Source: Isoetes taiwanensis (lineage: Eukaryota; Streptophyta; Lycopodiopsida; Isoetales; Isoetaceae). From it: 64,000 nucleotides of DNA. Under the pieces are notes generated by a model. That model ran no database searches and was not told the origin of the DNA. It saw nothing but the letters and a program-made list of their open reading frames with translations. Every line of letters starts with the position of its first letter. Position 1 is the stretch's first letter. Location of the stretch: positions 6,698,109 through 6,762,108 of the forward strand of contig JAJEKV010000004.1 in NCBI GenBank assembly GCA_021234155.1. Direction: 5' to 3'. Shown in pieces: positions 6,637 to 63,922 of the stretch. The position numbers and the translations under genes were made by a program.

Positions 6637-7378
6637 CTAACTTGCGTTAGAATGAAAGAACTGGGAGCACTTTTGGTAAGGCTTGCCCTGTGCTTCATTG
6701 ACAAGCCTTGTTCTAAGATGAGCCAGAAAAACTAACGTTGTTTTGTGTCCTATACAAAATCTTAAATCTGTTTCTGCCAGCAGGTTGCTTTTGTTGTTAT
6801 GCAGTGCAGTGCTGGTAGACTTTGTTTTCTTATTCGTTAAGGCAGAAAAAACTGATGCTAGTATTTCATTTGAAAATAAGAAGCCTTCAGGATCAGCAAG
6901 ACGGACATATGCTGCTTTTCCAAGTTCCAATGATGAAATAGGCCTCCTATTCCCATCTAATGCAAGAACGTAACCCTTCTGCACCATATGTTCCAGGATC
7001 CATTTCAATGGAAATTTCAGATGCAGAAGATAAACCATAATTCAATCTAACACAATCTATAATACGATGGAGTAGATATAGAGGAAGCAAGGAAGGAGTT
7101 CCTCCACCAAAGAATAGGGTTTCTAAAGGGCGCCCTAAATGGCATTTAGAAGTTGCAATAATTTCTCTACAGACTAAATCCACATAATCGAACATTAAGT
7201 CATTCTGGTTGCTTGCCTGTTTGGCAAGCGCCACAATGGTGAAGTCGCAGTAGAAGCAGCGGCGGCGGCAAAAGGGAATATGAACATATGCAAAGGTAGG
7301 GCAGGCATCGAAAGCACCTGAAACCATGTTGCGTTTGCCTTGAACTGAAAGGGCATGGAGACTTACAGTGTTAGAACT
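6637..7378 (-). pseudogene. HemW-like radical-SAM protein (CPO-like), internally deleted copy
   Basis: The N-terminal part matches the radical-SAM heme chaperone HemW/CPO-like family: YVHIPFC, then the iron-sulfur motif CxxxCxYCDF (cysteines near 7270-7245), and LETLFFGGGTPSLLP. The HemW C-terminus follows in another frame: GYVLALDGNRRPIS and AYVRLADPEGFLFSNE. The middle of the protein is missing. The two parts meet near 6975-7000, after ISIEMDPGT, with a frame shift. The copy has no introns, which fits a retrocopy, though the intron content of the parent gene is unknown to me. It cannot make a full protein. HemW proteins bind heme and a 4Fe-4S cluster; plant copies are usually organelle-targeted. 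Confidence 0.85.
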
Positions 7379-7479
7379 ATGTCTGGCCGCTGGTGTGAGA
7401 GCTGAGACAAGGCTCCATCTCCCATCTCCATCTAAACGGAGCCATGCCGGAGATGGGAGATGGGACCACGACTTCGGAA

Positions 7480-7665
7480 TTTCGGCTGGGGCGTATTCGG
7501 CTTCGGAATTTCGGGTGGGCATATTCGGCTCACAGTTTAGATTAGGTTGAATAGGCAGGTCGAATACCCCTTATGCCAGTTTTTTCCGCCGGCAAACAAA
7601 ACAGAAGATGCAGGCCGAATACCACGCTAGGGTATTCGGCTCAAAGTTTATTGGAATCGAGGCCG
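7480..7665. repeat. Second cluster of the GGGTATTCGGC / TCGAATACCCC motif
   Basis: CGTATTCGGCTTCGGAATTTCGG and a near copy occur side by side at about 7490-7530, followed by GGTCGAATACCCC, GGCCGAATACC and GGGTATTCGGCTC. The theme resembles the 5.9-6.2 kb cluster, with more CG. It begins within the 5' part of the HemW-frame reading, which explains why that frame can be extended artificially. Confidence 0.6.
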
Positions 7666-37279: not shown

Positions 37280-38511
37280 TAAGAATAGAATAGAATAGAA
37301 TAGAATAGAATAGAATAGAATAGAATAGAATAGAATAGAATAGAATAGAATAGGTTTTTTAGGTCCCACTTTTAGACCAATTGGCCTATGGGACCCAAAC
37401 AAAGAGAGCAGCAAGCATATTATCGACAGATTAAAAACCCCCACCGGCGAAGGGTTTTCGAGGGAAAACCTTAGCAAGAATAAGCATGCCGGCACACCGC
37501 ATAAATTGCATAGGACAGTTCAAGACCGCCCCAGAGGGACACAACGCTGTCCCTCAGTGCATCCATAACCTCCCCGGAGGTATGACCCCAACAAACCCAC
37601 CGACGCCGTAGTCAATAACCGATGCAACGGCCGCCGTGCACTAGTAGTCGAACATACCTCTCTGATATGGGCAAATGCCGGGCAGATCCGGAGGGTATGA
37701 CATTCATCCTCAATCGCTACCGTGGCAACACCGCAAAGCCTTTGCTCTCGCGGCTTCCCGAGCCCAACGCCATGTTTCAATGCGGAGGCGATGTGCACCC
37801 GCGCGAATGGAAGCTATAAGTCCGCGCTTCTTCATGGGCAAAATGGGTGTACAAGTATCGGGTGCCGCCTCTCTGTGAGCCTAGGATTGACTTGTCGCCG
37901 ATAGTGTGCCGCCTTAACGCGGCGCCGAGCCTCGCATCCCGTGAGCTTGCGAAGGAAAGTAGCATCTAGGTACGCTTTAAGTGCCTCGCGATCTTTCTTT
38001 GTCCCGACTGACGATCTGTTTTGCACGCCCCCGGAGAACCACCGAGCTTGTTTGTCTTTCCAAACAGGATTTCAGCGCTGGGGACCCATCGCCTGTGGTC
38101 AAAGCAAGATGGGGCAAGCATGTATCAGCCATAGCGACCACCTTTTGGAAGTAAACGATATGGCGTTCCAATGCAGCCCGTTGAAGGGGTAGAAAGCCTG
38201 TCTCCTGGAGTAGGATCTGGTACGGAACTGTGGACTTCACCCCCAGGGCCCGTGCCAAGAAGGCCTTCTGCACCTGCTCGAGGTCATTCCATGTGTTGAG
38301 GGGAATGACCGGACCCCACACTTCTGCCCCATACAGCAGGACCGGCTCAACCAAGGCCCGAAACAAATGTGACTGGTGGCCCCAGGCGTACAACTCTGCC
38401 CTGTGGCTGTTGTTCTGCATGGCATATAGTGCTTTCCAACCCGCCGTGACCCGCAACCTGATAGCCGCATCCCAATGGGTGGTAGTTGAGAACTCAATCC
38501 CCAAGTAAGAA
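37280..38511 (-). mobile_element. LINE insertion (37286-38505) with (TATTC)n tail and 6-bp TSD TAAGAA
   Basis: Flanked by TAAGAA at 37280-37285 and 38506-38511; uninterrupted unit copies carry the empty site. The minus strand encodes the C-terminal part of a non-LTR RT protein (LFRALVEPVLLYGAEVWGPV near 38350; WNDLEQVQKAFLARALGV) and, further on, a zinc-knuckle-like DECHTLRICPAFAHIREVC near 37700. The 3' end is not poly-A but 13-14 repeats of TATTC (37286-37352). It is 5'-truncated and has frame shifts near 37800-37980. The pentanucleotide tail defines a distinct LINE family. Confidence 0.9.
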
Positions 38512-38974
38512 CAAAATCAGGTGCCATTTGTCCTTAAGCAATGACTAGGTCAATATTTAACAATCATATCAAACTTCAATGTCCTTTCCTATATAATGTC
38601 CTTCAATGTCCTTTCCTATATAAGGACATTCAAGAGCAAAAGCTCCAAATAGGATTTTATGTTTCTAGAGTTTATGAATTACTCCGGTCATTTAATCACA
38701 CTAAAGAAGTTGAGCAATGTTTATCCTTACCATTTTCTCCATGTCAATGAAATAATTTGCCTTCCAACATTTGCCAATGCATCTATGCTTAATGGTCAAA
38801 GTGGATGTGTATACAACCCACATGGCTTTATCTTAGTCGCGCTAAAGAAGTTGAGTAGTCTATCTTTTCCATTTCGCCAATTTGAACCAATCATAGTGTT
38901 ACAACAATCACATAAAAGAAGTTGAATAGTGCACCTTTGCACTTTTGGACATTTTCTTAGTCAATCTTAATAAA

Positions 38975-59888: not shown

Positions 59889-59912
59889 CGAAATTTTCAA
59901 CACCTTGAAATT
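59889..59912 (+). repeat. Left 24-bp inverted repeat around the recombinase gene
   Basis: Exact reverse complement of 63306-63329 (core AAATTTTCAACACCTTGAAA). A weaker match (CCAA) continues outward. Just inside, AAATCACCTTGA / TCAAGGTGATTT (59920-59960) forms a further small fold-back using related words. The following 60000-60130 holds short TTCAAAATTACATTG tandem repeats. Confidence 0.75.
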
Positions 59913-60159
59913 ATAGCCTAAATCACCTTGATTTTTCAAACCGAAATTTCAAGGTGATTTTGAGGTGATTTTCAGTTGATATTTTGGTTCAAGGTTTCAG
60001 AGAATTTTATTGCAACAAAATTACATTAAACAACAGAATCACATTGCACTTCAAAATTACATTGCACTTCAAAATTACATTGAGTTCACAGTTTCAAAAT
60101 TACATTGAGTTCAAAATTACATTGAGTCACATTGAACTTCACAGTTTCAAAGTGCTGCA

Positions 60160-62600
60160 TCAAGTGCTGTGCAGCTTTTTCAGGATATCAGAAGCTATGG
60201 CAGGATTATCGCACGTAACAAAGACGCAACCAGAAAATGTGGCACCAAGGAAATTTTGCCCACCTGCATTGCTAACCGTATTTCCCTTTGTAACATTGTA
60301 GTGTCCTCCCTGTAACGCTCTCCTTGCCAATGGATCTGCCATCATCAACTCGTTGACAACGCCTTCGTCAATAAAATCCAATTCGTCCTGTATCTGCTTG
60401 TCAGGTAATTCTATGTTTTCTTTCCCAGCCAAACAAACAACCTGAAAAAATAAAAAACGAAAGACATTCATACGAAGATAGTGATTTAAAATTCAAAATA
60501 AATCAGATAAAATTACCTGCTCTTTGCACTTGGTTGAACATTCGCCTTCCATAAAAATTCCAGAATCAACCTGTTCAACATGATCTTCAGAATTTACAGC
60601 AGCAACAGTTGAGGAACCCATAACAACCTGCTACACAACATGAAACTATAAATATTTGAATGAAAAAAGATTTCAATAAAAAATAATCATGGTACCTGCT
60701 TCGGAACAACGAGCCCATTTGGAACACGATCATCCTGCACTCCAAATAACACCTTCCGCTTACTATTCATTTTGCTCACTAAGGACCTCATTATATACTT
60801 TCGAAGCTTCCCATCATCATCAACAGGGCTTTGATAGAATGGACATAGTCAGTAATGTCGACTTGAATTTCTTTGCTCTGTCATACCTAATTACAAAGAA
60901 AGTCAATGAAGTTAAGAAAATAACCTAACAATAATAAAAAAATGATAAAAAGGGAGAAAACCTTACTTTATGATACCGTCCAAGCGTGTTATGACCTGTA
61001 ACCTGCATCCCCACTTCAGCTGGCACACCAGCCAATGCCAATCGCGTCACCAAAGTCACGCGTCCAGATTTGTTGCAGATGTCGGCATTAACAGTCTGAC
61101 CCATCACTTTAAGCCATTTTGTGACCTGATTTGTGCCAACCCTTTGCTTATGGTACCAAACCTACAACAGATCTAATAAGTAAACATCTAAACCAAAAAA
61201 ACAAAACACAAAATCAAAGAACTTACATTACTGCACGCATTATCGATCGCAGTCAAGAATAGTGCGCCCTCCGTCTTATCGTCAGCCCCAAACTGCCTTG
61301 AAGGTAAATGCCTCACATACTGTTTGTAGGTGAACACGAAATCTTCTTCATAACTCCACACTGGATCCCTGAAATGATGGTCTTCATAACGCGTAGCAGA
61401 AGGATTATAATTCTTGCTGCATGCTTCCTCGTATTTCACAAACTCGCCACTCTCACTATTCTCCAAGGAAAATTGATACACCTTTAAATTCCAAATCTCC
61501 TTAACTGCCCTGATCCCAAACCTGCTACAGATATAAAAACAGAGACGTTTTTGGCAACCCCTAGGATGGAAAATTTGATGATCAACATCACCAAGCAGGT
61601 CATTCTCAACACTGAAAGGAATAACAGGTGCTTTCTTCTTCTTCCCCTTAACTCCAAGTAACCTCGAACGTCTAACAGCTACTATAAAGGCATATGTACT
61701 CTTTTTAAAGACATCTGACTTAAGGATATTGAACGGACGCTCCTCGATACCAGTCTGACCAAGTCTAACCTCTTGTTTTTTTCTTAAAATCCTGCCGAGA
61801 GTCCTATACAAGCAACCAAGACTGCAAATAAAACAAATAATCTATCAGATAAACTAGCCTAACAGAAATCTGACCCTAACAGAAATCTATGAGATAATCT
61901 ACCCTAACAGAAATCTGACACTAAGACTTAAATATCTGACCCTAACAGAAATCTGACTCTAACTATCTAACCCTAACTATCTGACCCTAAGGTATCTAAC
62001 CCTAAAGTATCTAACCCTAAGTATCTGACCCTAAAGTATCTAACCCTAAGTATCTGACCCTAACTATCTGACACTAAATATCTAACAGAAATCTGACCCT
62101 AACACAAATTAAACATCAAGCAAATTACAGTACCTTCCCGGTGGATAAACATCCTTGTTCTTTTTCTTGATCTGCAGCATAAACTTCATGAGCATGTCAG
62201 CCAGTTCAACCGATGGAATCTCTTCAATTGGTATCCTGCAATCAAACCCAAACCGTGATCTCCAACTATCAAATCTCCTTCTAGCCCATTTAGTTAGCCC
62301 TTTAGAGCCATCCCTCGCCTCCCCTTACGCTTCTTTCATCGGATCCGGGTCCAAAGCAAAGAACTTCGTCCTTATCATCACCAAATTTTGATCTTCTTGA
62401 AACCAGGGCCTCATTCGGATTTCGCAACAAAGTTATCAAGCTCGGGCCTTGAAATTTATTTAACAGTGCCGTCCAATATCTTCAAAGGCATCATCCAAAG
62501 ATTCAAAAGCAACAAGGCCAGGTAAAAGGTTAACCCCACAAGCTTCCCGAGTTGCATTGAGCTCAAAGCTAGGGTTCGCACCACTTGCACACACGTCCAT
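60160..62600 (-). CDS. Crypton/DUF3504-like tyrosine recombinase, copy 2
   Basis: Exons on the minus strand: a 5' part from ATG 62600 with stops, WARRRFDSWRSRFGFDC to KKKNKDVYPPG (about 62330-62136), 61833-61225, 61164-60977, 60886-60696, 60627-60517 and 60441-60160 (stop). The domain order fits the Crypton-derived DUF3504 family: VELADMLMKFMLQIK and YPPGSL; then FKKSTYAFIVAVRRSRL; SRFGIRAVKEIW (first catalytic Arg); TYKQYVRHL; then SGRVTLVTRLALAGVP (second Arg), VTGHNTLGRYHK (His and Tyr). The HxxR His appears as Lys (NKSGR). The C-terminus NFLGATFSGCVFV resembles the end segment of such proteins. Disablements: an in-frame TAA near 62320, a broken N-terminus, and a frame change near 60830. 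These could be real or mis-splicing on my part. Confidence 0.7.
61850..62110. repeat. Telomere-like minisatellite in an intron of the recombinase gene
   Basis: About fifteen imperfect copies of TATCTGACCCTAA or ATCTAACCCTAA, 12-14 bp each, plus ACAGAAATCTGACCCTAAC forms. Each contains CCCTAA or CTAA, the plant telomere word minus one A. It lies wholly inside the intron between the YPPG exon and the LGCLYR exon. Confidence 0.85.
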
Positions 62601-62698
62601 GCTATAAAACACACAAAAAAAAAACAATAAAGCACTTCATTCCAAAATGCATTTCTTCAAGATAGTCGGGTCTTACTCCACTATTTCTTCAGAAAGGC

Positions 62699-63170
62699 GA
62701 ATCTGCGAGAAAGGAAATGTTAGAAAACAAAAAAATTTCAAAAACTAACTAATGGAAACGCACAATCACCTGCATGCAAGTCCAGCAGCACTAACTCGGT
62801 AGAAATAGAAGCAAAATGCCAAAAAAGCTCCAAGAACCAAGAAAACGCCTCCAAAACTCGCAAGAACGAAGAAAAAATGGCGCTCCAAGGCGCTGACCTA
62901 AGACATTATGGCGCTCCAAGCAGTTATGGCGATTACAACATCTGCGAGAAAGGAAATGTTAGAAAACAAAAAAATTTCAAAGACCTAACTAATAAAAACG
63001 CACAATCACCTGCATGCCAACAGTAACTCGGTAGAAATGGAAGCAAAATGCCAAAAAAGCTCCAAGAACCAAGAAAACGCCTCCAAAACTCGCAAGAACG
63101 AAGAAAAAATGGCGCTCCAAGGCGCTGACCTAAGAGATTATGGCGCTTGAAGCAGCTATGGCGATTACAA
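62699..63170. repeat. Tandem duplication upstream of the recombinase gene, 2 x about 235 bp
   Basis: AATCTGCGAGAAAGGAAATGT... (62699-62938) is repeated at 62939-63170. The second copy lacks about 8 bp (CAGCAGCA region) and has a few changes. Each copy includes TGGCGCTCCAAGGCGCTGACC. As it lies 100-570 bp upstream of the ATG, it may double the promoter or first-exon region. Confidence 0.88.
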
Positions 63171-63305
63171 CCGGATCTACCACGAAAAAGAGCCAGATTT
63201 CAACTCCGGCAGCATGCCGGATCGAAAGTTACACGGCAGAGAAAGGTCGAGAATGAGAAAAAAAATTTCTTTTATACTTTTGACACGTAGGCGCCACGTC
63301 GACAA

Positions 63306-63329
63306 AATTTCAAGGTGTTGAAAATTTCG
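63306..63329 (-). repeat. Right 24-bp inverted repeat around the recombinase gene
   Basis: Perfect reverse complement of 59889-59912. Together they bracket 3.44 kb containing the whole recombinase gene, its intron minisatellite and the upstream duplication. Confidence 0.75.
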
Positions 63330-63331
63330 TT

Positions 63332-63426
63332 GGCGAATTTTTCTGAGCTGATGGCGGGCCGCTCGTGGCCCCGCCACGTCAGCTGGAAATTTCGAGGCGA
63401 AATTTCCAGCTGAGAAAAATTTCGCC
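63332..63426. repeat. Nested palindrome with AAATTTCG cores
   Basis: CAGCTGGAAATTTCG-AGG-CGAAATTTCCAGCTG (63380-63412) is a perfect 15-bp fold-back. Outside it, GGCGAATTTTTCTGAGCTG (63332-63350) pairs with CAGCTGAGAAAAATTTCGCC (63407-63426). The same AAATTTCG word ends the 24-bp inverted repeat, so this is probably the complex end of the same element or a neighbouring fold-back insertion. Confidence 0.8.
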
Positions 63427-63510
63427 TTCCATAACTAATACCTGGCCTTCCCAACATATATGTTTATGAAAGTAGGATAACAAAAGCCAAGACATGATCA
63501 TTGCCTGATT

Positions 63511-63922
63511 ATGGAGGACGCGGCCTTGAAAGAGGAGGGATGGCATCTTCAATCCGTAGTAGTAGAAAACCTGCGAAAGCAAATGGAAGGTTGTGTAGAC
63601 TTATTGGCAATGATCAGGACCGAACTTCTTGATATCGATCTTAAGCAAGTTGGGACTCCATCTCTGCCTCTTCGGCACCGGCTGATTGGGCGTCTAGTTT
63701 TACAGGTTAGGATCTCTCTCTGCAAGTAGCTTTCCATTTAAGGTATTACAAATAACGTATGTCAGTCAGGTTGTCAAAATTGAGGACATTGGCGAAAGTA
63801 GGGAAACAGGGGTAGGCAATCGAATGTTGAGGATCCATTTGACGGATGGGCACTACACAATGACTTCTATAGAATACAAGCATGTGCCAATTCTTTCTCT
63901 CGATATCCCACCAGGCACTAAG
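63511..63922 (+). CDS. RMI1/TDRD3-like OB-fold protein, first two exons (cut by window edge)
   Basis: Exon 1 is 63511-63705 (ATG to ...RLVLQ), the intron 63706-63769 is GT-AG, and exon 2 is 63770-63922, ending at donor AAG|GTGAG. Exon 1 encodes a helical N-terminal (DUF1767-like) segment, DIDLKQVGTPSLPLRHRLIG. Exon 2 encodes the first OB-fold strands: QVVKIEDIGESR, NRMLRIHLTDGHYTM, EYKHVPILSLDIPPGTK. This matches the RMI1/TDRD3 pattern (LQ..KV.N...P......RML...LTDG...C.A.E..P...L....PPGTK). RMI1 works with topoisomerase III and a RecQ helicase on recombination intermediates; TDRD3 pairs with topoisomerase 3-beta. Which one this is depends on the missing C-terminus. Codon frames and splice sites are intact. 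Confidence 0.8.

What the first reader, a model, noticed from the sequence alone, without database searches (positions are those of the whole stretch)
60160..62600. Crypton/DUF3504-type tyrosine recombinase gene in a plant
The sequence shows the domain order of Crypton-derived recombinases, ending in GRVTLVTRLALAGVP and VTGHNTLGRYHK, which carry an Arg, a His and a Tyr in the right spacing. Cryptons are well known in fungi, oomycetes and animals. From memory they are rarely described in land plants, so this may be an undescribed plant lineage.
Basis: partly seen in the sequence, partly recalled or inferred. Interest (0 to 1): 0.85.

Follow-up and report, generated by a model that had tools for sequence, protein, structure and literature searches.

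The report
Crypton-like jumping genes in a quillwort
The sequence is one worn-out copy of a family of jumping genes that move with an integrase-like DNA-rejoining enzyme, a kind that recent reviews call undescribed in plants, and here its ends and landing sites can be read almost to the base.

Summary
The minus-strand gene encodes a DUF3504/Crypton-type tyrosine recombinase. It is one decayed copy (59889-63430, 3,542 bp) of a multicopy DNA transposon in a 1.66-Gb assembly whose size matches Isoetes taiwanensis.

The window's own Pfam scores are below cut-off. The link runs through relatives in the same genome: one passes Phage_integrase, another DUF3504, and both align with the window's group (E 2e-59, 7e-26).

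Copies share fixed ends, and about 1-kb derivatives keep both. Uninserted paralogues, found for 6 of 11 copies searched, show no target duplication. The target preference (TTTW before the insertion, T at +1, A at +9) repeats in a second set. This points to recombinase-type integration.

A 2024 paper and a 2026 review say Cryptons are not identified or described in plants; some plant surveys list tiny 'Crypton' fragments. Departures from the textbook: Lys instead of the box-II His, and imperfect inverted ends. Placement among named Crypton groups could not be tested.

The parts
59889..63430 (-). Whole element (3,542 bp); gene-sense 5' end GGAAGG at 63430, 3' end AAAATTTCG at 59889
   Evidence: Common ends of sister copies with unrelated flanks, checked; two uninserted paralogues of this site
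62134..62665 (-). Exon 1, frame-broken in this copy (start approximate)
   Evidence: Match to intact exon 1 of sister copies with 4 stops; donor at 62133
61822..62133 (-). Intron 1, largely a 14/29-bp tandem repeat
61227..61821 (-). Exon 2, open: catalytic Arg (GIR) and Lys (SKN)
60967..61161 (-). Exon 3: box II (NKSGR) and TGH; 1-nt insertion near its end
60696..60886 (-). Exon 4: codon of the catalytic Tyr (KYDR in sisters); 1-nt deletion in this copy
60519..60627 (-). Possible further exon (splice signals only)
   Evidence: acceptor at 60628 and open frame
60160..60441 (-). Last exon, C-terminal tail, open
63379..63413 (.). 16-bp perfect palindrome arms near the 5' end (GAAATTTC motif)
   Evidence: I7
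59920..59960 (.). 18-bp, 89% palindrome arms near the 3' end
   Evidence: I6
63401..63424 (.). 24-nt stretch that matches the inverted 3' end (59889-59912) at 79%
   Evidence: I3
62701..63171 (.). 232-bp tandem duplication in the 5' untranslated part

Best explanation
A decayed copy of a Crypton-like DNA transposon. Shown: a multicopy element with fixed ends; a spliced gene for a DUF3504-type tyrosine recombinase; no reverse transcriptase, DDE transposase or Rep/helicase among the ORFs scanned; short derivatives with the same ends; insertion without target duplication, after a T-rich tetranucleotide. Inferred: the enzyme pairs the two ends, cuts with its Tyr, releases a circle and inserts it by strand exchange at a TTTWG-like site that resembles the element's own TTTCG end. 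The window copy is judged inactive; some other copies keep all tested exons open, and some pairs of copies are 99% identical over exon 2, so movement was fairly recent.
For: About 120 distinct places (my count of the listing) among 122 scored candidates match the protein, of 2,629 first-look candidates. Three-group alignment, 8 rows: Lys of SKN/SKT and K-S-G-R in 8 of 8, Arg I in 7 of 8, Tyr in all 7 rows that reach it. Relatives: Phage_integrase 31.6 over 27.1, phage-integrase PHROGs in 5 of 5 (best 4.2e-10), DUF3504 32.6 over 29.7; alignment to the window group E 2.4e-59 and 7.2e-26, two unrelated E. coli proteins 0.56 and 0.44. Common ends. Eight of ten loci picked for close-set ends are 0.9-1.6 kb copies with both ends; L080 matches the two ends of L023 at 93% and 96%. 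Uninserted paralogues for 6 of 11 copies, no duplication. Target bias seen again in a second set. Median dN/dS 0.10 in group 1, 97 of 171 pairs usable.
Against: Window and group-1 proteins score below the Pfam cut-offs, single exons of L021 give no recombinase hit at all, and the DUF3504 genome search missed this copy. PDB profile search: none for A1, two chance-level hits for A2. XerD versus A1 E 0.75, no better than the unrelated controls. Box II has Lys where the tetrad has His; group 3 has Gln in place of the His of TGH. A predicted G at +5 did not replicate (6 of 20). No circle, transcript or movement was observed.
Confidence: 0.93

Rival explanations
1. A domesticated DUF3504 host gene, like ZMYM or QRICH1, that uses the old recombinase fold to bind DNA.
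For: DUF3504 homology; one of 8 members has a weak QRICH1 match (E 0.017).
Against: About 120 places in one genome, common ends, and uninserted sites; box-II Arg and Tyr kept in sister copies, which the animal DUF3504 genes lost (PMC3212892 passage). A single domesticated member elsewhere in the genome is not excluded.
Confidence: 0.02
2. A tyrosine-recombinase retrotransposon (DIRS, Ngaro or PAT) that lost or lacks its reverse transcriptase here.
For: These also integrate by a tyrosine recombinase and leave no duplication (recalled).
Against: No reverse transcriptase in ten of the 17 ORFs of 70 aa or more of L021, a copy with open exons; copies of 3.3-3.6 kb share both ends with nothing else between them.
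Confidence: 0.03
3. A non-autonomous element moved by another transposase (Helitron or a DDE transposon) that merely carries a recombinase gene.
For: No target duplication would also fit a Helitron; imperfect inverted ends would fit a DDE element.
Against: No duplication at 6 of 6 resolved sites speaks against DDE; ends GGAAGG..TTTCG are not TC..CTRR (motif recalled); recombinase under strong purifying selection in the group.
Confidence: 0.02

Closest known systems
Cryptons (groups A, F, I, S in PMC3212892: outline, sections 3, 5, 8, 17 and passages seen; group V named in PMC5753468: passages seen)
   Same: Only mobility enzyme is a tyrosine recombinase; short similarity between ends and target in place of long terminal repeats; non-autonomous derivatives; DUF3504 homology.
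   Different: Host is a land plant; more than a hundred places scored where most reported hosts have few; Lys at the box-II His in the sequences aligned here; imperfect 24-nt inverted ends in the window copy; an intron just before the catalytic Tyr codon.
DUF3504 genes (KCTD1, KIAA1958, ZMYM2-4, QRICH1, WOC)
   Same: Same domain by profile through relative L002.
   Different: Those are host genes that lost the catalytic Tyr and second Arg (PMC3212892 passage); this is a repeated element whose sister copies keep them.
DIRS/Ngaro/PAT retrotransposons
   Same: Integrate by a tyrosine recombinase.
   Different: No reverse transcriptase found in the ORFs scanned.
Phage integrases (PF00589, phrog_1)
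   Same: Catalytic half recognised in sister group A2.
   Different: Spliced eukaryotic gene; direct comparison of the window group with XerD not significant.

Membership tests
Crypton | DNA transposon whose only mobility enzyme is a tyrosine recombinase | tested here: met
   Homology chain A1-A2-L002; no other mobility domain in ten of 17 ORFs of L021
Crypton | Catalytic Arg I, box-II Arg and Tyr | tested here: met
   A1: box-II Arg 8 of 8, Arg I 7 of 8 (Lys in L034), Tyr 7 of 7 rows that reach it. A2: all three invariant in 5 of 5. L002: all three
Crypton | Box-II His of the R-H-R-Y tetrad | tested here: not met
   Lys in 8 of 8 (A1), 5 of 5 (A2) and in L002. I treat it as a variant, because DUF3504 proteins are classed as Crypton-derived by homology without the tetrad (PMC3212892) and Lys at this place occurs in other tyrosine enzymes (recalled). 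Whether known Cryptons share it could not be tested
Crypton | Integration without target duplication | tested here: met
   6 of 6 resolved sites; 5 of 11 copies searched gave no uninserted site, in searches that scored 40 candidates each
Crypton | 4-6 bp direct repeats at both ends | tested here: inconclusive
   Target TTTWG against element TTTCG; perfect over 5 bp at L021, imperfect at the others
Crypton | No terminal inverted repeats | tested here: not met
   24-nt, 79% inverted match of the ends in the window copy (I3); in other copies mainly AATTTT and GAAATT are shared. Described as absent in fungal and animal Cryptons (PMC3212892)
Crypton | Clusters with a named Crypton group in a recombinase tree | not testable with these tools
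   No eukaryotic sequence collection; two scans of viral contigs found no relative
DIRS/Ngaro/PAT retrotransposon | Reverse transcriptase in the same element | tested here: not met
   ten of 17 ORFs of L021
Helitron | Rep/helicase protein and TC..CTRR ends | tested here: not met
   (end motif recalled)
Domesticated DUF3504 gene | Non-mobile host gene with lost catalytic residues | tested here: not met

The most novel reading that the evidence does not exclude
A distinct, long-resident land-plant branch of Cryptons with a Lys-type box II, split into several deep recombinase groups within one genome with different ends, some recently active, that integrates by near base-exact strand exchange at a loosely symmetric TTTW-G-T-N7-A target. 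It would overturn the statement that plants lack Cryptons and give one of the best-resolved Crypton target sites known.
Probability: 0.4. Interest if true: 0.82.

Novelty: new variant of a known kind. Interest (0 to 1): 0.74.

Why it matters
Recent plant literature says Cryptons are not identified or described in plants (PMC11397423, PMC13317346, passages). How Cryptons choose and join their target is largely inferred by analogy, as most reported hosts hold few copies (PMC3212892). A genome with more than a hundred copies, short derivatives and uninserted paralogues makes ends, core and target readable and testable. It also places a spliced tyrosine-recombinase DNA transposon in an early vascular-plant lineage, which bears on whether Cryptons are an old eukaryotic inheritance.

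Tried and rejected
Structure prediction of window exon 2 alone gave pLDDT 33.6 and was not used; no fold search was made. PDB profile searches gave none and two chance-level hits. Two scans of viral contigs found no relative. NCBIfam gave none. A genome search with the QRICH1 model found none, with silent controls.

The idea of a target core G-T-N-N-N-G was noted before new ends were fetched. T at +1 held (16 of 22, then 13 of 20); G at +5 did not (11 of 22, then 6 of 20); A at +9, visible in the first set, came again (14 of 22, then 16 of 20). In one search a pattern anchor misplaced some 3' ends; anchors all 20 by match coordinates, and two of them (L118, L119) do not end in G. Two of the 20 new 5' ends (L140, L141) have the same flank and are one event.

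Joined ends as a recombinase site with a GGAAGG core between inverted arms fit the window copy and L015 (CGAAATTTT) but are weak in other subfamilies, so this stays a suggestion. A head-to-tail junction in L155 is a single case. In the dN/dS count 74 of 171 group-1 pairs and 777 of 990 pairs among the others were dropped for saturated or tiny dS; L088 was dropped before the tree.

Searches scored 40 candidates each, and the second was crowded by repeats of the L015 flank, so the five copies without an uninserted site are no evidence of absence.

Full report
What is there. On the minus strand of 59889-63430 lies a spliced recombinase gene inside a repeated element. In the genome that holds the window (1,658,258,908 bases, 1,110 contigs) the protein has 214 exon-wise matches; by my count of the listing they include about 120 distinct places that cover exon 2, among 122 candidates scored of 2,629 in the first look. 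The size agrees with Isoetes taiwanensis (1,658.30 Mb; 204 scaffolds and 909 contigs; PMC8566536, passages). That the host is this quillwort is an inference.

Catalytic residues. The splice sites of sister copies show that exon 3 ends in ..TGHNT-DGY(R or Q)-AA and exon 4 starts G-TAT-GAC, so the protein reads KYDRSKE with Tyr nine residues after the His. Its exon 1 is broken too and its exon 4 matches only from residue 19. Of 19 group-1 copies (window plus 18), four have each of five tested exons as one stop-free match (L015, L021, L022, L023); L023 has Arg for the His of TGH. Across three groups (8 rows, one a composite) the Lys of SKN/SKT, K-S-G-R and TG are invariant; Arg I is Lys in one row, and the His after TG is Gln in the three rows of group 3.

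Is it a tyrosine recombinase? Directly, the window copy scores 20.5 bits for DUF3504 (cut-off 29.7) and 12.3 for Phage_integrase (cut-off 27.1); the group-1 proteins scanned are below cut-off as well, and of the 8 members of A1 five match each model at E up to 1. A genome search with the DUF3504 model listed only L001 and L002. The link comes through relatives. In a sister group with long open frames (L105-L112), L105 passes Phage_integrase with 31.6 bits, and all five rows of A2 match it at E up to 1 and a phage integrase family at 0.001 or better, best 4.2e-10. L002 passes DUF3504 with 32.6 bits and has Phage_integrase at 4.9e-5. The window's group aligns with A2 at E 2.4e-59 over 281 columns and with L002 at 7.2e-26 over 301 columns, in register at TGH and Tyr. 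Two unrelated E. coli proteins gave 0.56 and 0.44; XerD gave 0.75, not significant, though box II and GH fell in register.

The element. Copies share a 5' end GGAAGG and a 3' end AAAATTTCG with unrelated flanks; 25 5' ends and 22 3' ends were placed. I paired hits of the two ends (40 and 51 hits) and fetched ten loci chosen for close-set ends. Eight are 0.9-1.6 kb copies with both ends, L081 had no clear 5' end, and L088 is 3.1 kb. As they were chosen for shortness, this is no estimate of their share. L080 matches the two ends of L023 (634 bp at 93%, 464 bp at 96%), as an internal deletion would. Ten of the 17 ORFs of 70 aa or more of L021 were scanned: no reverse transcriptase, DDE transposase or Rep/helicase; only weak chance matches.

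Integration. Joined flanks of 11 copies were searched in the genome. Junction-spanning uninserted paralogues turned up for 6 (window, L015, L018, L021, L023, L083), not for 5 (L016, L027, L028, L031, L032). Sixteen were aligned. At five sites the uninserted sequence has left flank, one G, right flank; this is clear in ten paralogues and ambiguous in an eleventh (L101). At L015 the base is C in five of five. L083 has a T run of different length and about 80% identity, so its exact point is less sure, and the window's paralogues cover only 26 bases of the left flank. No site shows a duplicated target. The left flank is T-rich at -4 to -1 (T in 20, 18, 15, 17 of 25; in a second set 14, 15, 11, 15 of 20, two of which are one event); T at +1 in 16 of 22 and 13 of 20; A at +9 in 14 of 22 and 16 of 20. 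A predicted G at +5 did not replicate. TTTW-G in the target resembles TTTC-G of the element, as expected if strand exchange needs local similarity; that step is inferred.

History. Exon-2 dN/dS has median 0.10 within the window's group (97 of 171 pairs usable) and 0.20 among the others (213 of 990, dS near saturation), so the enzyme was under selection as it spread. Six pairs are 99% or more identical over exon 2, the window copy and L015 among them, and a tree of 64 exon-2 sequences shows several deep groups. One group-2 pair (L037, L158) has other ends, with TTTACG at the 3' side and TTTTG at the 5' side. The L002 protein has 184 listed matches, some to the A2 group.

What is known. Cryptons were reported from fungi, animals, oomycetes and a diatom, with low copy number in most hosts and without inverted ends (PMC3212892, sections 3, 5, 8, 17 and passages). 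[quoted passage not shown] 'not described in plants' (PMC13317346, passage); not described in Arabidopsis (PMC7385966, passage). On the other side, a survey lists Crypton in all taxonomic groups (PMC4438587, section 8), and two angiosperm surveys list 24 and 13 tiny fragments (PMC6294377, PMC4743950, passages). Ten library searches were made. In some searches not all terms were required, so many listed papers lack the word; from the listings I opened only the papers named here and PMC11630846, PMC3537659, PMC5753468, PMC4157794 and PMC7353026 (passages). 'Crypton' with 'Isoetes' gave none. The Isoetes genome paper has no 'Crypton' in its main text; its supplements were not read. Repbase Reports and most subscription journals are not held, so priority is not settled.

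Verdict. 'Works like a Crypton' is strong. 'Is a Crypton' holds by homology and life style, with two departures tested (box-II Lys, imperfect inverted ends) and one test not possible (tree with named groups). I file it as a new variant.

Noticed in passing
window 63511-63922 (+): Start of a gene that looks like RMI1, about 80 bp beyond the element's 5' end; the Pfam match (RMI1_N_C, 36.6 bits) is in 63770-63922, the first frame from 63511 alone had none.
   Followed up: partly
window 61839-62119: Intron 1 is mostly a 14/29-bp tandem repeat whose unit contains CCCTAA, as in plant telomere repeats (telomere unit recalled).
   Followed up: no
L155, position 3834 of the reverse strand: A 3' end runs straight into a 5' end with one shared G, a head-to-tail junction like that expected of a circle or of insertion beside another copy.
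   Followed up: partly
L105-L112, L156, L157: Sister recombinase group with one long open frame in several copies and a 12-nt inverted pair (ATGGTATTTGGG) near the ends of L156 and L157.
   Followed up: partly
L001, L002, L113, L114: Another DUF3504 group with several introns, 184 listed matches with the L002 protein.
   Followed up: partly
window 37977-38516 (-): Open frame that looks by eye like the C-terminal part of a LINE reverse transcriptase; no Pfam match at 0.01.
   Followed up: no
window 6947-7570 (-): Radical-SAM exon, 29.2 bits, just under the 29.5 cut-off.
   Followed up: no
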